Assembly (NCBI GenBank): GCA_947034885.2
Contig: OX344755.2
Span: 6,078,501-6,142,500 of the forward strand
Direction of reading: 5' to 3'
DNA: 64,000 bases
Source: Thuidium tamariscinum
Lineage: Eukaryota; Streptophyta; Bryopsida; Hypnales; Thuidiaceae
Part shown: one piece after another, positions 1 through 54,400 of the stretch
Position numbering within the stretch: position 1 is the stretch's first letter
Layout of the letters: the number at the start of each line of letters is the position of its first letter
Made by a program: the position numbers and the translations under genes
Notes under the pieces: model-generated
What the model saw: only the letters and a program-made list of their open reading frames with translations
What the model was told of the DNA's origin: nothing
Databases searched by the model: none

Positions 1-234
1 ATGATCGCCGTCTTGTTTCCTTTGCAGGACTGGGACTTTTCTACAGAGGTCCCCAGAAGAGAAGAGTTAGCAGTTGTAATAACACAGTGTATCATCTGTC
101 TGATACATGGAATAAACTGTCACCTCGGGGGTACTCACGCAAGCTCGCATTCAGAATGATGACAAGCACTTGCGGCCAGCATTCGGAGACTCAGATAAAT
201 GAATAGAAATCACATTGATGAACAGCAGTTCTAC

Positions 235-492
235 CTCTTCATCAGCTAATTTGGAAGCGGCAGCTTTGGCAGCTGCTTGCCCGCTCTCAAATTGCGTGGC
301 AAGGTCGCGAACTGACAGTCGCTTCTGCAGCTTTTCCAGCTCCACCGCTTCCTTGGCAACAGCGACTTTGGACGGAGAATCGGTCTCGCCATCTTGATCA
401 TGGAAACCGGTCCCATTCAACGTCACATCAGCTGTAACACCTTTCATCGCACTGGATCCGAAGCTGCCTAATAAATATTTCTTGTCAGCTAT
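235..492 (-). CDS. N-terminal exon of a SCAB1-like actin-binding protein
   Basis: Read on the minus strand this exon gives about 86 codons ending just before a GT (234-233). The stretch LEKLQKRLSVRDLATQFESG followed by QAAAKAAASKLADEE matches the N-terminal region of plant SCAB1 (stomatal closure-related actin-binding protein), which has QKRLSVRDLASKFEKG and KLSEEAKLREA at the same place. In that family this N-terminal part precedes coiled coils and binds and bundles F-actin in the cytoplasm. The preceding residues GVTADVTLNGTGF resemble the SCAB1 segment before it. The frame is open from an AG acceptor at 493 (phase 0), so the true start may lie in an upstream exon; the first in-frame Met is at 447. 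The rest of the gene lies beyond the left edge. No further exon was found in bases 1-234, although this could be intron. The match is from memory of the family, not an alignment. Confidence 0.7.
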
Positions 493-2050
493 CTGCCTTC
501 ATCATAAGCGTTTCTCCTCGGCAAAGTAAAGAAGCCGGTTTCGCACCACATATAGCGGCAGTTCTATGAGCTCACATGCCCTGCCAAACAGGGAAGAAAC
601 GATTACAAACCATTGACAAAGTGGGATTACAACTACAAGTCTCCAAAAAACTGAAGTTCCATGTCTGAGAAGGATGTGGCGCTGCCTCTCTAGACTTCCA
701 AAACCATTGTGCTCACTTGAAGCGCTACATGAAGCACTCCTAAAATGCAAATGAGAAATGAGCGATCGCTAATCCAGACAAACTTAATGAGAGACAACGA
801 ACACGATCCTGAAATGCTGAACAGAACAGGGGAAATTTCGACAGAACAGCTCAGTGTTCATGGTTAGACAGCGATAACAACCGTCTTTCTATCAAGCGAC
901 AATACGGTGCGCGTCAAGGACGCGCTGAGAGAAATTAAATCCTTTTAAATGACTAAAAGCAATGTTCTAGCTAGACACTGACGACGAACGTCGACTATTT
1001 GATAAGACATCTTTTTCAACCACCTCCCCAAACCCCTAGTACAGCAGAGTTCCGTGTCTCCCACCAGCTTTCCGGACTGATTATGTCTTCTCCTCTGTAG
1101 ACACTCTCGCCAGAAACAAACAATAAATTGCGTAAGCTTCAACGAGCTTTAATTGCCATATCACTAAGAAATACAGCCTGTACACCATGGCCGAACAACC
1201 TGCTCTACCTGTTCCCGTACACTACCCGCCACAAGGGCCATGACGACCGCAGTCTAGCCGAGCAGGCCTAATCCTCCAAGCTCACACGGAGCAATTCCCT
1301 CTTATCACAGATGGACACCGATTAACCACAAACATACAACCGCGCACGACTTTCTCACTTCATGCGAAATCCTGGACCAAAAAAACAACAAGAACTAGGC
1401 TACCTGCGACGAAACTTTGACTCCGTCTCATCCCCGCCTCCGCAAGAAGAACTCAAACATCGCAACAATTACACTACTGTAATGGAACAACTAAACAACT
1501 CCCCCTTCCCCCCGACTCCTATCAGACCTGATTATTCTCACTTGAGCGTGTTTCGAAGAACTCCTTCGTCTCACCAATACGGCTCACCGCCGGTCGGGAC
1601 GAAACGACCAACCCCACGATTTCCGCCGCGTCTAGTATTCCTCGAAGCAGGGCAAGCGCAAACAACAGCTAGGCAGAAACGACCGCTGACAGGGTATTAT
1701 TAGCATGTGGAATCTGACGGAGATGCAGGGCCTGCTGTGGCTCTGGCCGGAGGAGATGAGGTTCCCGTCAAGCTCCCGTCTGATCACGCAATGGCAAGCC
1801 CAAGCTCCGTCGCTGCAACTGTCGTAGCGACAGGCCTGGCTCCCTGCTGCGCCAGGCAGTCCCCCCAGACCTGGCTCGAGAGTGACGCCGTGCGGATGAA
1901 TGATGCTCATCAGTACTCCATCGGGGGTTTAGGGGGCGGGGGACGACATCACGACATTGATTCCAGGATGAAAAACATTCATCCTCTACCCGTGACAGAG
2001 ACGCAAGGATAGATGATATTCGTCGTCCACCCGACCTCGTTTGTTCGGTA
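493..2050 (-). other. Upstream region of the SCAB-like gene
   Basis: This stretch is clearly richer in GC than the following 55 kb and carries no convincing coding sequence in either direction. Given the orientation of the exon at 235-492 it probably holds the 5' untranslated region, an intron and the promoter of that gene. Open frames at 1362-1703 and 1707-2012 have unremarkable composition and no recognisable motif. The compositional edge near 2.05 kb is where repeat-type DNA begins. Confidence 0.45.
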
Positions 2051-3427: not shown

Positions 3428-3656
3428 TTAACCCTGAAGCGTCTCAATCCTTTTTAGAATTTTTGCACATTTTTGCTTATAGCTTTGTACAGATATATTA
3501 TTTACCAGAATTTAATGAATTTGGTCATTAAGGAAGGTTGTCTTTTCTAGATTCAAGTGTTACATTTGATAAATGAGAAGTTAATTGGATGAAATAATGC
3601 CTTGAAGCCCTCTGTTTATCATCTAGAATATGGACGTCGGCACGCTTCAGGGTTAA
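3428..3656. mobile_element. TTAA-flanked MITE, copy 1 (piggyBac-like)
   Basis: The element runs from TTAACCCTGAAGCGTC to GCACGCTTCAGGGTTAA, so the ends are inverted repeats beginning CCCTGAAGCGT and both sides carry TTAA. A TTAA duplication with termini starting CCC is the signature of piggyBac-type transposition. The interior (221 bp) has no coding capacity, so it would depend on a transposase elsewhere. A second copy of the same length lies in the opposite orientation at 48937-49165. Confidence 0.75.
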
Positions 3657-6856: not shown

Positions 6857-7567
6857 TAGGATTGCTCTCAACTATTAGGATTACTCAAAATCTAAAGATT
6901 CTTGGTATTGGATAATAGTCTAAATCTAGTTTGAGATCCAATGCATCTTAACCCGTAAATGTTAAATGTCAGGCCTACGACCACTATTTTCATTCCTTGT
7001 GCTGTACACTAAGTTTATTGCCATTTTGGGACTAAATATAGATGAAAAATTTTAGATTTATTTTTCAAAGATGAAGTTACATGTCTTCTATACTTCCTTA
7101 AAAATTTAGATTTTTTTTGAAGAAAATTGATTTTTTTGATAATTTTTGAAGTAAAAGTGAAGAAAAATCACATCAAATGGAAAAATATCACAACAAATCT
7201 GAAATTTTCACCATGTGGTGTACATAACAGTGGCAAACATCATGGTGATAACACAATTTCCGTGTCACCTTATAAGTACAATCCAAAAGACATCAAAAAT
7301 ATATTCATAGTTCAAATTGCAATAAAATATTCAGTATTATGAATTTTTTTCAAAATTCCAATCAGAGCTTAAACTAGAGAAGATGACCTTCATTTCATAA
7401 GTTGGACTCATATTCAAAAAATATCATTTGTGTGGAGAAATTTCATATTTAGAGCAAGAAGCAAGAGCTTCCCAAAATATACTAAAAATAGCATATATTG
7501 GAATTCCTTTTTATAATAATTCCTTAATCACATGAATAAAAACACTTATAAGACTCAAAGTGAATTA
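6857..7567. other. AT-rich spacer
   Basis: No recognised gene or bounded element. A 71-codon open frame at 7127-7342 has no motif and an AT-driven composition. Confidence 0.4.
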
Positions 7568-7834
7568 AGGGAGAAACACCCAAAACCGTCCCTATACCCT
7601 ATATTGGACCGTAGGCTCATCCAAAACTTTCTTTAGACTGTAGTTAATGTGTTTGCCAAATATTGCACTCTAATTTACTAATGCATATTAAGGACAAATA
7701 CCATAATGCGATTGGCTCACTGTTGATTTTAGCAGTGTTCAGATTTAGGGGCATCTATTGAATAATTTCACTAGTCTAGGGAGCCAACACTTTAGAAAAT
7801 CATCAAAATTACATACGACATCCGAATTTATTTT

Positions 7835-8770
7835 TTAACCCCTAAAGGACCACAACCGTAACCGTTTTTCAACCCAAAACCACTTAAAACTGCCATTTCT
7901 GCCCCATTCATCCATGAAAAACAAAAAAAACTAAATTTTTAGAATCTAACCATAGGATCTTGTACTTTACTTAACTGAGATCATGTGGTGAAAATTTCAT
8001 GAAGCTTGACCGTATAGATAGGAAGATATGAGCATTCAAAGTTGGAAAACAAAGTTTTCTTAAACTCTAGTTTGCAACTTCAAATGACTTTGTCCTCCAT
8101 TTATGTAATTTTTTGCACTATAGGCCTTGAATTTAAATTTTTTTCTATTGAGAAATTGAGCTAAGAGCTTAGGAAAAAAAATCACAAAATAAAGACTTTT
8201 TTTTCATTCTTTAAAAAATTGTCAAGTAGATGTAGGTCCAAGATTGAAAGAAAAACTAAATTGCAAATATCTCATAGATGGAATTGAAACACAATAATTC
8301 CAATGGTGAGATTGTTCTAGCAAACAAAATCAACCTTATCTAACAATTTTTTTTGAAAAATTGTAAAAATTGCATTTACAAATGAATCCTATAAGTTATT
8401 TTTTCAAGAAGATGCTTAGCCATTGCCCGAAAAACAAGATGGTTCATAACTTTCACACTACTAATCCAAATGGAATGAATCAAAGCTTCACTTGTAGACA
8501 AAAATAAAATCTATAAGAGAAAAAAACTAATTTTTTAATTTTTAATTTTTTGTAGATTTTTTTTTGCCCGGCAACATGAAAATTAAATTTAAGATGGTGT
8601 AACTTTTGCTCCCGGTCACCAATTGAAAAAATAATAATATTTCCAAAGAGCTAATCAGTTTTTCTATCTTATGTGAAAATTTCAAGAAAATTCATTAAAA
8701 ATTGAAGTCACAAGTACCTGCCCAAATTCTTAAAGTCCCTCGAGGGGACTCTTGGTTCTTTAGGGGTTAA
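7835..8770. mobile_element. 936-bp TTAA-flanked non-autonomous element
   Basis: The ends are TTAACCCCTAAAGGACCAC and TTGGTTCTTTAGGGGTTAA, which form a near-perfect inverted repeat of about 15 bp with TTAA on each side. It splits copy a of the TA-flanked family. The interior has long A/T runs and no coding capacity. The CCCC start and TTAA duplication suggest piggyBac-type mobilisation, although the termini differ from the smaller TTAA elements at 3.4-4.2 kb. Confidence 0.75.
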
Positions 8771-8834
8771 TATTCATGATTTTCACTTGCTAATACTAAA
8801 AAAATATTATTTTTAGAAAAAATGCCTCCAACTA

Positions 8835-9220
8835 AGGGAGAAACACCCATTCCCGTCCCTGTACCTTGTAGTGGAGTGTAGAGTCACTCAAATATGTCCC
8901 TAGAGTGTAGTTAATGTGTTTGACACATGTATGAAAATAATTTGTTGACACAGGTGAAGGACACTTAAGAAAATCTGGTTGGCTCAGGGCTGATTTTCGC
9001 AGGGTTCAGTTTTGGGTGCATCTACTGGACACTTTCAGTGGTCTAGGCACCCATCACTTCAAAAAAACATAGAAATTACATACAATGCCCAAAAAATTTA
9101 TTTCTTTTTTTGAGTATTCATAATTTTCACTCGCTAATACTAGAAAAATATCAATTTTAGGAAAATCTCCCTCCAACTATGCTGAATTCCTTAAATGGAC
9201 GGTTTTGGGTGTTTCCACTG
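8835..9220. mobile_element. TA-flanked Tc1/mariner-like MITE, copy b
   Basis: It runs from AGGGAGAAACACCCATTCCC to TTTTGGGTGTTTCCACTG with TA on both sides (8833-8834 and 9221-9222). The flanks rejoin as CTCCAACTATGCTGAATTCC, the very sequence found inside this family, so copy b inserted into copy a. Length 386 bp, non-coding. Confidence 0.85.
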
Positions 9221-9251
9221 TATGCTGAATTCCTTATTAAGATGATTTTGG

Positions 9252-9549
9252 CTAGGGGAGGATACTTCCCGTTTTTTAATAACCTACCTGCGGCGGAATA
9301 TAGGGTACATTTAAATAATCTTGGGTAAAATTTATAAAATATTTACATATAAAATAGGGGACATTAAAAAGGCAAAGTGTTTTAAAAATAAAATAGGAAT
9401 GATAATATGGTTGATTTTTCCGCTTTATGATAAAATAGGGGCTCTTTTAATGCTGCCAAGTAATGATTACAAGTAATTGATAGCCCCCCTAAAAATACCC
9501 CACCGCCGCACGTGGGTCCCCCAAATACACAAGAAGTGTCCTCCCCGGG
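9252..9549. mobile_element. 298-bp hAT-like MITE
   Basis: The element has inverted ends CTAGGGGAGGATACTT and AAGTGTCCTCCCCGGG, and is flanked by a perfect 8-bp duplication GATTTTGG (9244-9251 and 9550-9557). An 8-bp duplication is typical of hAT transposition. It also shares AAATAGGGGACNTT, CACGTGNGGC and AGCCCCCCNAAAAATACC blocks with the larger element at 43861-44848. Non-coding. Confidence 0.8.
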
Positions 9550-9571
9550 GATTTTGGGTGTTTCCACCGTA

Positions 9572-10091
9572 GGTACTCTTCATAATCCTTAGTTTGTGAA
9601 AGATCAAGAAAAGTAAAACAGATGAAAAATTGCTTTCATCCTCCCTCATCACTGTTTCTAAGTCATCCTAGCACCATGAAATGGCGTCGCCGACATTTCA
9701 GGGTTAACTAGAAAATATGAATTCATAAAGATAAAGGGGTGTGTTCTGACTAGAGCATCAAGAACTATGATACATGGCAAAATATGGTGCATTGAAATGC
9801 CTTGGTGCCAACCAACCCTTTTTTTTTTGGCAAAATGGTGCCAAATAGCACTATTGGAAAAATCCTAACAAAAAAGCCTTTAATGATTTTTTTAAATGAA
9901 AAAATGAAAAGTCAGAAACCAACCAAAGGTTCCCTAGCCATGGACTAAAGGTCATTGCCTCCTTTGTTGTCATCGCCTATTTCCTTGCCCATCTGTGAGC
10001 CCTCGAGATGGCACTCAGGACTCTGGGTCCATTTTTCACGATTAAATAGCGAAAATTAGCTAAAATATACAAGAAAAGAACATAAAAATAG
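9572..10091. other. Spacer with one isolated TTAA-type terminus
   Basis: No gene seen. The sequence GCCGACATTTCAGGGTTAA at 9687-9705 matches the right terminus of the TTAA-flanked MITEs, but no partner end was found upstream. It may be a truncated copy. Confidence 0.4.
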
Positions 10092-24822: not shown

Positions 24823-27668
24823 TCATTCTTCTTCCATAGACTGATTTCCTTCATCGTTGTATTCATCGATTGAAAAGGCCACCAATGATGCCTTGATGAT
24901 GCCAATTTGTAAATTTAGGATTGACACTTTCGATTTTTTAGTGTTTTCTCGAAAACGAGGCTTTTGAGCCGTTAGGATACATCCTGTACTTGACCATGCT
25001 GGCTTAATTGCAATGTCTTCATGCCACACATTCCCTTGTTTTCGTGTCCCATCCCTCATACGTATCCATATTAATATGTCGATTCGAGGTAGGTATTCAA
25101 TACTGAATTCTAATCATATGCATATGCCTTGGATGTGGATTTGGAGCTGTAATGGCCCTAGCAAGCCAAAATGGTTTAGGGTCACCATTAGCGGGGCGCA
25201 CTACTATAAAAAAACCTACGTGTGTATCAACATTAACTCGGAATGAAGGACGTGGTCGATCACGTCTACTTCCAACGAATGGTGCATCTTCTGCGTCTTC
25301 TTCATGTAATGTACCACCTCTTTGCATTCGATTTGTCTCATCAGGGGCAATCCTAGAAGCCAACCAAAATCCATCAAGTAATGCTTCACGGACTTGAAGA
25401 TGTGCATTCAGAGCTACTCAAATGCCTTTCCAATAATCTTCTAAACCACCATTCTTTCGTCTAAACTCTCTTGTGTAATCATCATTTGCCATTTTCTTCT
25501 AATATTCAACAAAACCGCTCAAACCCTTCTTTATGTCCAGAAGAGCCTTCATTGGTTCAGGAACTAGAGGTGGAGGACTACTGGTTGGTACTTTAGGGAG
25601 CCCGTCAGCAGTCTCGAACCACAATCTAATTTTCTTGCCACCCTCAGACAACCACTTATCATCTGTACACAAATGTTTATATTCTATTAGAGTCCACCCA
25701 TTAAAATCTTTGAAAAACTTAAATTGTTGAGATCTAGAATGACCCTCTAAAAAGTCTCCACCTGTACCGAGGTATCCTTGTACAAATGCCTTGAAGTTAG
25801 AAACTTCCTCAATGAAATGAAGAATGACTGGGTATTCTTTACAATCCATAAAGGATTTTAGAAGCCTTGGAAGTGTTGGATAGTTATTTGTCTTCAATCT
25901 AGAACTCCATCGACCAAAAAGAGCATCTATATCTTCATGAGTGTGTCCCACAATGAGGAAGTTGATGTACACCTCACAAAAAATGCCTTTGCATACAAGC
26001 ATAGAGCAAAAACCAAAAATATAACGGTTCTTGTTGTCCTTTGAACAATTGTTCTGCTGTAATATTAATATAGAAGGAAGAGGAAGTGATTCATCCGGAG
26101 GTGGAAGAAGGGAGTCCAAACAAGTTTAAGTTCCATTTAAAAGTGCCTTTGTCAAGGTGGATTGGTTATTTTCTATTGAAAATAACGTATGTGATGAATT
26201 CTTTGGCACTCCCTCCAAATCACGCAACAACCTTGCAATCGACCCAATGGTATGATTTGAATCTGTTGAATAAATGCCCAAACCATAATGTGTATATCGC
26301 ACATCACCATGCCCATAAGCAATCATACCTGTAACAGCAACATGCATTTTCATGAAGGATTCGGTCACTTTAGTCTTGTGGGAAAAGTGAGGAGAAGCAG
26401 TCTTTGAATGATCCATCTTGTCATGAATAATGCACAACATCTTATCTGGAATTTTTATTAATTCGTCCCGATTGCAATAATAGTACTGTCTATGAGCCAA
26501 TTGTCCTTTATTATGGGTTTTCTTCAATTCTTCCCACTTTGATCTTGCTTCTTCACCCACACAAGCGCTTTTCAATTGGTTGTACTTGTCACACAAGCCA
26601 CATCTAGCAAATGTCTCTCCGCGCGCCTTTGCAGCAAACTCAAGAAAAGGATCACGACAAATATTGCTCAAACCACTAGAAGAAATGGATGACAAATTGA
26701 AGCTAGCATTGGTTTCATTGATTGTTTTCAATTGATCACTCCAATGAAACAAGGATGGAAGAACCATGGCAGTGACCTTCTCCCTAGATTCCAAGTTCTC
26801 GTCTTATGCAGCATCTTATCAGCATCTGACTCAATTAACTTCCGGAGTGTGGAAGTAGCTTGAAGAGTTTGGATACGAGGCTTCTTACTTCCCAAATTTT
26901 CATGGACATCCGTTTGCTTCCAGTTTTAGTTTTTTCTTTGTACCTATAAAATATACATTTTGCAATTCTATAAATGATCCACCATGCACTAGGACAGACT
27001 TCCTTCTTTTTTAAGGTGATCCATTCTTTGCCATTAATATCTTTAAGGATCTGCCTATGTACCTCCAAAAGTGTCTTATTGCAAGCGTTGTAGTGATGTC
27101 CTCCATACAAATCAGTTCGAATGGCCTGAATTTGTGCGTGCAAAAAAGGCTGCATACAATTCCTTTCACAATATTTTTTTGTGGAAACTGCTATGATTGA
27201 TTCCATAGTCAGGAAAAAATCTTTCTTGGGAAGAACCTCCGAATCAACTCTTATGCAACTTGATTCATACGATCGAATCCCCTTTTGAATTCTCTAGGGG
27301 CTCATGGCCATGTTGTATTTATGTATTTTGTCATGGTCATACAAAGAGGCACCATCGTGAAGAAACACTCTCCTAATGGGCCAAGAATGTAATGACCACA
27401 TATTTGCAGAGGAAAATAAATCCTCATTCAAAGACTCCGCAATATGAATGGCAACACGATCTTCACCAAGCGACCTTCTATTATGGTCAATGACCAGCTC
27501 AAGATCAATGTTTTGAATGACTCCTCTTTCTACCTCCATTCCATTTTCATTTTGAAGAGTAACGGGTTGCGTGAACCACTTCATATGAGGCGATCCATTT
27601 CATAAATGAACATCAAGTGGAAGTGTAGGAACACGGATGACAAAGTCCCCAAATTCATGATAATCCAT
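24823..27668 (-). pseudogene. Relic DUF7869-type transposase-like gene with C-terminal BAH-like segment
   Basis: Read on the minus strand. It begins MDYHEFGDFVIRVPTLPLDV at 27668, then hits a stop and resumes through MKWFTQPV. The block 27206-26835 follows. The block 26794-26126 has Cys residues CGLC, then KMLCIIHDKMDHSKTASPHF and GHGDVRYTHYGLGIYSTDSN with SIARLLRDLEGVP. The next block (26119-25499) has LQQNNCSKDNKNRYIFGF, then VGHTHEDIDALFGRWSSRL. A final block (about 25400-24895) has VVRPANGDPKPFWLARA, like the BAH-type region at the end of this family. Acidic residues in MDHSK and GHTHEDID could form a DDE-type site (inference). The family usually has LDNC where this copy has QNNC. At least two stops and shifts between the blocks make it non-functional. 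No terminal inverted repeat was found. Confidence 0.7.
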
Positions 27669-49889: not shown

Positions 49890-50136
49890 GCGCAGCGTTA
49901 AATCATATCATCGAAGGTGGACCCCACAGGCTGGATTTACCCAAGGGAAAACGTTGGTTTTAAAAAAAAAATTCAAATACAGAATTCAGAATCAGAGACC
50001 CCAAATTAGCTAGGAGCAACCCCGTAAAATACCAAAAAACCGAACGCAAATATAAATTCCAAACCCTTGTAAATCCGTAGTAAAATGAGATTTATCCCAC
50101 TAGGCCCACTTTCGATGGTATGATTTAACGTTCTGC
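49890..50136. mobile_element. Mutator-like MITE, copy 1
   Basis: The long inverted ends read CGTTAAATCATATCATCGAA with GGTGGACC inward, mirrored by GGCCCACTTTCGATGGTATG with ATTTAACG. The flanks AGGCTGTAT (49881-49889) and AGGCTGTAC (50137-50145) form a 9-bp duplication with one change. Long inverted ends plus a 9-bp duplication indicate Mutator-type mobilisation. Length 247 bp, non-coding. Confidence 0.8.
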
Positions 50137-50984: not shown

Positions 50985-51818
50985 AGGGAGAAACACCCAA
51001 TACCATCACTGCACCTTGCAGTGGACCCTATATTCATCCAAAATCGTCCGTAGAGTGCAGTTAATGTGTTTAGAGCATCCCCATGCCATACACGGCAAAG
51101 AGGGGCGCCAAAGCCTGATTTAGAGTGCTCAGTCAATTAGCCTGAGTCCTGTGGTTCTCCCTTGCCCCATTCCTAAAACTTTAATTGACACGTCAAGACA
51201 AGAATTCATCAATTTAGCACAAGTACCCAAAACAAGAAAAGCTTCATTCTGCTAATGTGGTGCATCTTATGAGTGACTTTGCACACAATACTCACCTTTT
51301 TGCATTTACAAGCCCAAGGACCGAGAACTGATCTGCAAACAGTACCTCGAAATCTGAATCAGATTATATAGTGTGCCATGCTTTGCACACACAATTTGGA
51401 TGTGCCCCCATCAAAATATGGAGTTGACATTTGTTTTTTTCCATTTAGTGAGTCTGGCATGGGTCTCTCCCATTGCCTTGGCCAGCCCAATGAGCATGTT
51501 TTGCATGTTTAGCGTGTTGGCATGGAGATGCTCTTACCAAATGCGTCACTTTACTTCAATGGTGTATATTAAGGACAAATACCCATAATGTGATTGGCTC
51601 ACTACTGAATTTAGTAGTGTTCAGATTTGAGGCCATCTATTGAATAGTTTCAATGGTCTAGGGAGCCAACACTTGAAAAAATTATAGAAATTATATATGA
51701 CATTCAATTTTTTAATATTCATGGTTTTTATTCATTAATATTAAAAAAATATCATTTAAAAAAATTGCCTCCAACTATGCTAGATTTCTTATTTGGATGG
51801 TTTTTGGTGTTTCTATTG
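50985..51818. mobile_element. TA-flanked Tc1/mariner-like MITE, copy c, with a Tourist-like insertion
   Basis: It starts TA then AGGGAGAAACACCCAATACC and ends GGTGTTTCTATTG then TA. Removing the insertion at 51073-51533 restores the family sequence AATGTGTTTACCAAAT. The interior blocks ATTAAGGACAAATACC, GTGATTGGCTCACT and CTAGGGAGCCAACACTT match copy a. Confidence 0.8.
51073..51533. mobile_element. 461-bp Tourist/PIF-Harbinger-like element
   Basis: The inverted ends are GAGCATCCCCATGCC and GGCATGGAGATGCTC, with a TTA duplication (51070-51072 and 51534-51536). A 3-bp TWA duplication is characteristic of PIF/Harbinger-type elements. It lies inside the TA-flanked copy c. The short open frame at 51373-51588 crosses its right end and is not a gene. 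Confidence 0.8.
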
Positions 51819-52902: not shown

Positions 52903-53166
52903 ACGTTAAATCAGCCCTACGAAGTCCCTAATTTTATCACAAGGTAAATGCTGAAATTTTTTATTTTTTGCATAAATTTCTATTTTCAAATTCTGAGTTC
53001 ATAATTGGCATCAAAGACCCCTAATTAATCTTTAGTTACCTAAACACAACCAAAAAAACCAACGAAAACATAAACCCCAAACCTCAATCAAACCCTAGTA
53101 AAATGAGTTTTACCTTACTAGAGCCACGTTCTACCCCATTGTCGTGCCTTTGTAGGACTGATTTAA
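52903..53166. mobile_element. Mutator-like MITE, decayed copy
   Basis: It starts ACGTTAAATCAGCCCTACGA and ends CTTTGTAGGACTGATTTAA. The interior shares TTTTTATTTTTTGCA, AACCCTAGTAAAATGAG and AACCAAAA blocks with copies 1 and 2. The duplication is not visible. Confidence 0.55.
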
Positions 53167-53699: not shown

Positions 53700-54400
53700 G
53701 GATGATGTTAAATCCTACCATTGAAGGTGGGCGTAGCAGGCTGGATTTACCGTAGGGCTAAGGGAGAAACACTCATTCCCGTCCATGTACCTTGCAGTGA
53801 ACTGTAGAGTCACTCAAATATGTCCCTAGAGTGCAGTTAATGTAATTACCACATGTGTGATTGTCATTTGCTGACACAATTGAAAGACACACAGGAAAAT
53901 CTGGTTGACGGAGTGCTGATTTTCATAGGGTTTAGTTTTTTAGTTTTTAGTTTTTTTGAAACACAGGGTTCGGTTTTTGGTACACCTATTGCACACTTTC
54001 AGTGGTTTAAAGAGCCATCACTTCAAAAAAACATAGAAATTACATGCAATGTCTGAAAGTTCTATTTCTTTTTTTGAATATTCATGATTTTCACTTGCTA
54101 ATACTAAAAAAATATCAATTTCAGGAAAATCTCCCTCCAACTATGCTAAATTCCTTATTTGGACGGTTTTTGGTGCTTCCACTATAAATGCTGATTTTTT
54201 TTTAAAAAATTGCACAATTTTTATTGTTTGCAAATTCAGAATTCATATTTGCAATCAGAGACTCCAAATTAGCCAAGGGAGGTCTGAAATATATCCAAAA
54301 ACATGGCACTAAATAGGGGGCTTTTTAAAAATTTTACCTCCCCGTAATTCAAGGTTTACCTTGTTGGGTCTACCTTTGACGGTAGGATTTAACGTCCTGC
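53700..54400. mobile_element. Mutator-like MITE, copy 4, split by a TA-flanked MITE
   Basis: The ends are GGATGATGTTAAATCCTACC and GGTAGGATTTAACGTCCTGC. The flanks AATCTTTTG (53691-53699) and AATCTTTCG (54401-54409) are a 9-bp duplication with one change. The centre holds a TA-flanked element at 53761-54184; without it the element is about 275 bp, close to copy 1. Confidence 0.85.
53761..54184. mobile_element. TA-flanked Tc1/mariner-like MITE, copy d
   Basis: Starts TA then AGGGAGAAACACTCATTCCC and ends TTTTTGGTGCTTCCACTA then TA. It is collinear with copy b (GTCACTCAAATATGTCCCTA, ATCTGGTTG, ACTTTCAGTGG, TCCCTCCAACTATGCT), with an extra short T-rich stretch near 53935. It lies inside Mutator-like copy 4. 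Confidence 0.85.

What the first reader, a model, noticed from the sequence alone, without database searches (positions are those of the whole stretch)
7568..9569. Four mobile elements nested in one 2-kb site, ordered by target duplications
A TA-flanked element contains a 936-bp TTAA element, a second copy of its own family (TA duplication) and a hAT-like element (8-bp duplication GATTTTGG). Each insertion breaks the outer element at a point where the sister copies at 51.0 and 53.8 kb are continuous. The order is therefore fixed as outer copy first, the other three later. Three different transposase types hit the same small target. The sequence facts are direct; the superfamily names are inference from duplication length and termini.
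Basis: partly seen in the sequence, partly recalled or inferred. Interest (0 to 1): 0.7.

Follow-up and report, generated by a model that had tools for sequence, protein, structure and literature searches.

The report
Five-element nest of DNA transposons
A 2.8-kb stretch of a land-plant genome holds five small DNA transposons stacked inside one another in three layers, an ordinary kind of genomic pile-up whose order can be read from intact copies elsewhere in the same genome.

Summary
Taking out the three inserts leaves a 376-bp element that aligns straight through all three junctions with its relatives. The inserts (928-bp TTAA, 386-bp TA, 298-bp with an 8-bp duplication) are dispersed families with constant duplications.

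Three corrections. The 'outer' TA element itself sits in an older, roughly 748-bp TTAA-flanked repeat (6948-9707); five other copies of that repeat show the exact single-TA empty site, so the nest is five elements in three tiers. The 51.0-kb sister has its own 461-bp insert. And another outer-family copy, on C1 near 38.47 Mb, carries a TA-family element at exactly the same point. That inner element is more diverged, so I read it as a second hit on a preferred target, but a shared composite is not excluded.

Nesting is common here: 32 of 52 fetched insertions lie in DNA repeated within a 352-kb sample.

The least ordinary part is the TTAA class, with piggyBac-like ends, in a land-plant genome with 116 scored piggyBac-type transposase matches. 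The link between the two was not shown.

The parts
6948..9707 (.). Outermost host repeat 'Z': TTAA-flanked element, own length about 748 bp (halves 6952-7567 and 9572-9703), TTAA at 6948-6951 and 9704-9707, ends CCCGTAAATGT / CCCTGAAATGT (9 of 14 terminal bases agree)
   Evidence: searches (left half: 39 listed non-self matches at 80-87%; right half: 29 of 39 listed non-self matches end at query 137-141, i.e. at the TTAA), for the ends
7568..9569 (+). 'Outer' TA element of the finding (own sequence 376 bp), TA duplication 7566-7567 / 9570-9571
   Evidence: exact empty sites in other Z copies (and L003, L055)
7839..8766 (+). 928-bp TTAA element, ends CCCCTAAAGGACCA, TTAA at 7835-7838 and 8767-8770
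   Evidence: 39 listed non-self copies, 93-95%; TTAA on both sides in 9 of 10 fetched copies; 214 exact 5' ends genome-wide, 0 in control; uninterrupted relatives
8835..9220 (+). Second TA element (386 bp), young subfamily, TA at 8833-8834 and 9221-9222
   Evidence: 39 listed non-self copies at 98-99%; TA on both sides in 30 of 30; 69 exact 5' ends, 0 in control; uninterrupted relatives, single TA; a TA-family element at the same point in one other copy
9252..9549 (+). 298-bp element with 8-bp target duplication GATTTTGG (9244-9251 / 9550-9557), ends CTAGGGGAGG / CCCGGGGAGG
   Evidence: 39 listed non-self copies at 96-97%, one further partial at 73%; perfect 8-bp duplication in 27 of 30; 461 exact 5' ends, 0 in control
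50985..51818 (+). Sister copy 1 of the outer family, itself interrupted by a 461-bp insert at 51073-51533 with TTA duplication (51070-51072 / 51534-51536)
53761..54184 (+). Sister copy 2, uninterrupted at the three points, closer to the young subfamily (85.5% to 8835-9220)

Best explanation
This is a stack of five non-autonomous cut-and-paste DNA transposons (MITE-like; no transposase found in them). A TTAA element (Z) inserted first. A TA element then landed in Z. Later a second TTAA element, a young copy of a related TA subfamily and an 8-bp-duplicating element each landed in that TA element. Each was most likely moved in trans by a transposase of its own superfamily: piggyBac type for TTAA, Tc1/mariner type for TA, hAT or another 8-bp type for the third. 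The TA-in-TA insertion used a target that fits the subfamily's own preference. Shown: boundaries, duplications, nesting, empty sites, family copies. Inferred: which transposase moved which element, the relative order of the three inner inserts (from divergence only), and that the same-point insertion on C1 is independent.
For: Remainder aligns through all three junctions. Sequence-level empty sites for all four nested insertions in held relatives: outer in L003 and L055; TTAA in L062 and L074; TA in L083, L076 and L005; 8-bp in L024 and L005. Five exact single-TA empty sites of the outer element by coordinates. Constant duplications in the families. Differences from the column majority of sampled copies: outer 36 of 374, 8-bp element 9 of 298, young TA copy 4 of 386; the TTAA copy is 95% identical to its nearest listed copy. 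Young TA insertions favour C before the TA (16 of 30) and A at -3 (15 of 30); the site in the outer element, CCAACTATG, has both. piggyBac-type transposase domains: 116 scored of 659 candidates, all 116 over cut-off. DDE_3 (Tc1/mariner type): 48 matches of 67 candidates, 46 over cut-off.
Against: The C1 copy with a TA-family element at exactly the same point could mean a shared older composite instead of two hits. No transposase was tied to any of the five elements by shared ends: the 100 listed TTAA ends (C1-C4 only, of 214) lie no nearer than about 9 kb to the 54 piggyBac domains that one search lists on those contigs, the next nearest being 132 kb. The 8-bp family's target bias does not match the hAT consensus that I recall. 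Z's two ends agree at only 9 of 14 bases.
Confidence: 0.88

Rival explanations
1. Outer plus inner TA element is an older composite that was duplicated or moved as a unit, so that the TA-in-TA insertion is not an event of its own at this site.
For: A copy on C1 (38472680-38474363) has a TA-family element at exactly the same point, with the right-hand junction reading CTGTATGCTGAATTCC as in the window; the left TA reads GA there.
Against: The window's inner copy is 98-99% identical to 39 other copies while the C1 inner one is about 76% identical to it over 342 bases, so they look like two different insertions. The C1 copy has no TTAA insert at the window's point (its matches run 7570-7826 and then 8768 on), but a TTAA element elsewhere, inside its inner TA copy. 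28 sampled relatives lack the insert. The whole 2,002-bp stretch matches full length only at its own place among the listed matches.
Confidence: 0.08
2. The second TA copy arose by local tandem or internal duplication of the outer element, not by transposition.
For: Same family, same orientation.
Against: It is only 76% identical to the outer element but 98-99% identical to 39 other genomic copies. It has complete ends and a TA duplication, and relatives have a single TA at that point.
Confidence: 0.01
3. TA-family elements are true insertion hot spots, hit by several transposase types at fixed points inside them beyond what base composition explains.
For: Three inserts in 376 bp here. A second TA-in-TA insertion at the same point on C1. 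By coordinates, TTAA elements inserted at about the same place (window 8891-8910, where a TTAA lies) in two other TA-family copies, on C1 near 38.473 Mb and C10 near 6.219 Mb. One of two sister copies carries an insert.
Against: Counts of exact family ends in the flanks of sampled loci are 0, 0 and 1 against 0.15, 0.05 and 0.33 expected, too few to decide. The family is large, and simple target motifs (TA after C, TTAA) may explain the repeats.
Confidence: 0.2

Closest known systems
Nested insertions in plant DNA transposons (e.g. MULEs of maize and rice, PMC3903597; abstract and passages seen)
   Same: DNA elements of several superfamilies inserted in one another; the paper reports that over a third of candidate coding MULEs carry nested insertions
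   Different: Here all five are short elements without a transposase, within 2.8 kb, three tiers deep
piggyBac superfamily (PMC12732532 and PMC9587614, passages seen)
   Same: TTAA duplication; ends beginning CCC
   Different: No transposase within these elements; ends CCCCTAAAGG, CCCGTAAATG and CCCTGAAATG not matched to an autonomous copy; host is a land plant, and PMC12732532 calls the superfamily only occasional in plants (its example is red algae)
Tc1/mariner MITEs (Stowaway)
   Same: TA duplication, short AT-rich element with terminal inverted repeats
   Different: Ends AGGGAGAAACACCC / CAGTGGAAACACCC differ from the Stowaway consensus that I recall (CTCCCTCCG)
hAT-type MITEs
   Same: 8-bp duplication, 298 bp, short inverted ends
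   Different: Ends CTAGGGG / CCCGGGG and target bias nnTnnAnn are not the usual hAT signature (recalled)

Membership tests
piggyBac-type non-autonomous element (7839-8766 and Z) | TTAA target duplication, single TTAA at empty sites | tested here: met
piggyBac-type non-autonomous element (7839-8766 and Z) | Ends begin CCC (piggyBac) rather than RR (Kolobok) | tested here: met
   CCCCTAAAGGACCA, CCCGTAAATGT / CCCTGAAATGT; criteria from passages of PMC12732532 and PMC9587614
piggyBac-type non-autonomous element (7839-8766 and Z) | Shares ends with an autonomous element encoding a piggyBac transposase | tested here: inconclusive
Tc1/mariner-type MITE (outer and 8835-9220) | TA target duplication | tested here: met
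   30 of 30 young copies TA on both sides; single-TA empty sites
Tc1/mariner-type MITE (outer and 8835-9220) | Shares ends with an autonomous mariner-type element | not tested
   Only presence of DDE_3 domains was checked: 48 matches of 67 candidates, 46 over cut-off
hAT-type MITE (9252-9549) | 8-bp target duplication | tested here: met
   27 of 30 perfect, 29 of 30 with at most one mismatch
hAT-type MITE (9252-9549) | hAT-type target consensus (recalled: nTnnnnAn or nnnTAnnn) | tested here: not met
   Bias is T at position 3 (22 of 29, p about 3e-6) and A at position 6 (15 of 29, p about 0.03); T at 2 and A at 7 not significant. So not filed as hAT, only as an 8-bp-duplicating element
PIF/Harbinger (Tourist)-type insert in sister copy 51073-51533 | 3-bp TTA/TAA duplication with inverted ends | tested here: met
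   TTA on both sides, ends GAGCATC[C/T]CCATGCC; one copy only

The most novel reading that the evidence does not exclude
A land-plant genome, probably a moss, carries a large, recently active piggyBac population (116 scored transposase domains, ten of them with the same score and the same open frame of 1,023 codons). That population has spread many TTAA miniature elements, one of which hosts this nest and one of which is an inner layer. A paper seen here calls piggyBac only occasional in plants.
Probability: 0.55. Interest if true: 0.5.

Novelty: new member of a known kind. Interest (0 to 1): 0.3.

Why it matters
The nest itself is a clean teaching case: four insertions, each with an empty site, give an order of events without any clock, and one target seems to have been hit twice by the same family. 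The wider point, if borne out, is that TTAA elements with piggyBac-like ends, and many apparently intact piggyBac transposases, are abundant in a land plant. That would give a native plant system for a superfamily known mainly from animals.

Tried and rejected
Tandem duplication for the second TA copy: rejected, wrong subfamily. Composite movement: lowered but kept as a rival because of the C1 copy. Kolobok for the TTAA class: disfavoured, ends CC not RR (criterion from PMC9587614). A first trial with the wrong right edge of the 8-bp element was corrected. A first pattern for its duplications found nothing (pattern one G short) and was replaced. Transposase genes in the held sample: 126 reading frames from the loci gave RVT_1, zf-RVT, Plant_tran, DDE_Tnp_4, cyclophilin and UPF0253 and no piggyBac; 44 from the window gave DUF7869, SCAB-ABD and SH3_retrovirus. 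End-density test for clustering: too small to decide. A search of the held sample for further TA-in-TA insertions at the same point used a loose pattern; apart from the window's own, none of its junctions shows both sides of the outer element. PDB search for the window's first gene: nothing. Literature: searches for piggyBac with moss, bryophyte, Physcomitrella or mosses listed no paper that I could see reporting piggyBac in a moss; I looked into three of the listed papers. In the moss genome paper both occurrences are the word 'piggybacking'; a fern genome table lists PiggyBac repeats; a review lists PiggyBac among angiosperm MITE superfamilies. A search for Hypnales genomes and DNA transposons found none.

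Full report
Setting. The window is C7:6078501-6142500 of a 363-Mb genome in 19 contigs, with matches on C1 to C11. A plant-specific SCAB actin-binding domain is encoded at 154-498 on the minus strand (E 1.2e-10), so the host is a land plant. Three moss assemblies of 275-413 Mb with 11 chromosomes appear in the listing (abstract starts only), so a moss is likely.

Observation. The junctions in the finding are present. The outer TA element is 7568-9569. Inside it are a TTAA element (core 7839-8766), a TA element (8835-9220) and an element with the 8-bp duplication GATTTTGG (core 9252-9549). With these taken out and one copy of each duplication kept, 376 bp remain. They align continuously with the second TA copy (76%), with the 51.0-kb sister once its own insert is set aside (80.5%) and with the 53.8-kb sister (73%).

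Independent copies. Each insert is a dispersed repeat. The TTAA element has 39 listed non-self copies at 93-95% and 214 exact 5' ends. The TA young subfamily has 39 listed at 98-99% and 69 exact ends. The 8-bp family has 39 listed at 96-97%, one further partial match at 73%, and 461 exact ends. The backward-read control gave 0 for each pattern. The lists are capped at the best 40 candidates. Duplications are constant: TTAA on both sides in 9 of 10 fetched copies plus the window copy, the exception having TACA on one side; TA in 30 of 30, window included; 8 bp perfect in 27 of 30, window included, and at most one mismatch in 29 of 30, the exception being L040.

Empty sites. Relatives in the held sample run uninterrupted through each of the four insertion points: L003 and L055 for the outer element (L067 with a changed TA); L062 and L074 for the TTAA element (L066 and L087 with a changed TTAA); L083, L076 and L005 for the second TA copy; L024 and L005 for the 8-bp element (which prints up to four hits per query). 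Among 28 non-window relatives of the outer element with a recognised left end, 26 have both ends 348-394 bp apart; L072 has a diverged right end without an insert, and L074 has lost its right end. L089 was dropped because its left end was not recognised. These relatives were chosen by their match to the left 267 bases, which favours copies uninterrupted there.

A result against simple independence. In one search the pieces at C1:38472678-38474363 are those of an outer-family element that has a TA-family element at the same point as the window's second copy. Two short stretches confirm it: one side reads CTTCAACGAAGGGAGAAACACCC (the TA is GA there), the other CCACTGTATGCTGAATTCC. The inner element there is about 76% identical to the window's over 342 bases, while the window's is 98-99% identical to 39 others, so two separate insertions at one target are more likely than one shared composite. 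The target fits the subfamily's preference: of 30 young insertions 16 have C before the TA and 15 have A at -3, and the site in the outer element has both. By coordinates, the inner TA copy on C1 and a TA-family copy on C10 near 6.219 Mb each carry a TTAA element at about the position of window 8891-8910, where a TTAA lies.

A deeper layer. The left flank of the outer element (7250-7566) has 39 listed non-self matches at 80-87%, and the right flank (9570 on) has others, 29 of 39 ending at 9706-9710. At five places the two matches abut and share exactly one base, as expected for a single TA: C4:14109890, C6:6825099, C4:30241840, C1:32300278 and C5:4522248. At a sixth, C8:15599005-15599014, they are consistent with it. 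The outer element therefore sits in an older repeat. In the window that repeat begins TTAACCCGTAAATGT at 6948 and ends in the complement of TTAACCCTGAAATGT at 9707, so it looks like another TTAA element of about 748 bp, although the two ends agree at only 9 of 14 bases. The nest is five elements in three tiers.

Order and age. Nesting fixes the older repeat before the outer TA element, and the outer before the three inner ones. Among the inner three only divergence speaks. The young TA copy differs from the column majority of sampled copies at 4 of 386 sites and the 8-bp element at 9 of 298. The outer element differs from its relatives at 36 of 374. The TTAA copy is 95% identical to its nearest listed copy. 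The samples are best matches, so these figures are rough and are not dates.

How ordinary is it? Of 52 fetched insertions with clean duplications (27 TA, 25 of the 8-bp family), 32 lie in DNA that recurs in the held sample of 352 kb, none of them counted through the elements by which the loci were chosen (sample size). 11 of the 52 have a match crossing the empty junction, some of them (L022, L057) poorly aligned there. One (L050) is an 8-bp element inside a relative of the TTAA element. The 51.0-kb sister carries a 461-bp insert with a TTA duplication. A test for clustering by exact end counts was too small to decide. Nested insertions are well documented in plants (PMC3903597, abstract and passages seen).

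Names. TTAA with CCC ends fits piggyBac and not Kolobok, whose ends are RR (PMC9587614, passages; PMC12732532, passages). In the held sample, TTAA-flanked pairs of inverted ends number 23, against 13 for AATT, 12 for ATAT and 6 for TATA, and 7 of the 23 begin CC (two further words tried there, TAAT and ATTA, are not palindromes and are no control). Of 659 candidates for piggyBac-type transposase, 116 were scored and all 116 were over the cut-off; ten share one score and one open-frame length of 1,023 codons. A link by shared ends was not shown: the 100 listed TTAA ends lie no nearer than about 9 kb to the 54 listed domains on the same contigs. For the TA class only the presence of DDE_3 domains was shown (48 matches, 46 over cut-off). 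The 8-bp family shows T at position 3 of its target in 22 of 29, which is not the hAT consensus that I recall, so I leave its superfamily open.

Verdict. A real and mostly well-read nest of small DNA transposons, one layer deeper than described, and ordinary in kind. The repeated use of one TA target, and the abundance of TTAA elements and piggyBac-type transposases in a land plant, are the parts worth a second look.

Noticed in passing
window 6948-9707: The outer element of the finding is itself nested in an older TTAA-flanked repeat with many copies and exact single-TA empty sites.
   Followed up: yes
C1:38472680-38474363 of the genome; L111, L112: Another outer-family copy with a TA-family element at exactly the same point as the window's second copy, and a TTAA element inside that inner copy.
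   Followed up: partly
C10:6218658-6220360 of the genome: By coordinates, a TA-family copy split by a TTAA element, with a second TA-family copy next to it.
   Followed up: no
window 51073-51533: A 461-bp element with TTA duplication and ends GAGCATC[C/T]CCATGCC inside the sister TA copy at 50985-51818; PIF/Harbinger-like by duplication length.
   Followed up: partly
whole genome: 116 scored piggyBac-type transposase domains, many in long open frames, ten with identical score and frame length, in what appears to be a land plant.
   Followed up: partly
window 25499-26803 (-): Two adjacent reading frames with DUF7869 (5.1e-37 and 7.8e-4, the latter under the curated cut-off), broken between frames; possibly a decayed mobile-element protein.
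   Followed up: no
window 3428-3656: Another TTAA-flanked short element (221 bp, ends CCCTGAAGCGT).
   Followed up: no
window 49898-50128 and 52906-53166; L010: Short stretches with inverted ends of the type ATCATACCATCGAA next to TTAA; a further family, possibly with a TAA duplication.
   Followed up: no
L050, 1326-2527: An 8-bp-duplicating element of the same family inserted in a relative of the TTAA element: an independent nest of two of the same families.
   Followed up: partly
window 154-498 (-): Reading frame with the SCAB-ABD domain of plant-specific actin-binding proteins, which places the host among land plants.
   Followed up: partly
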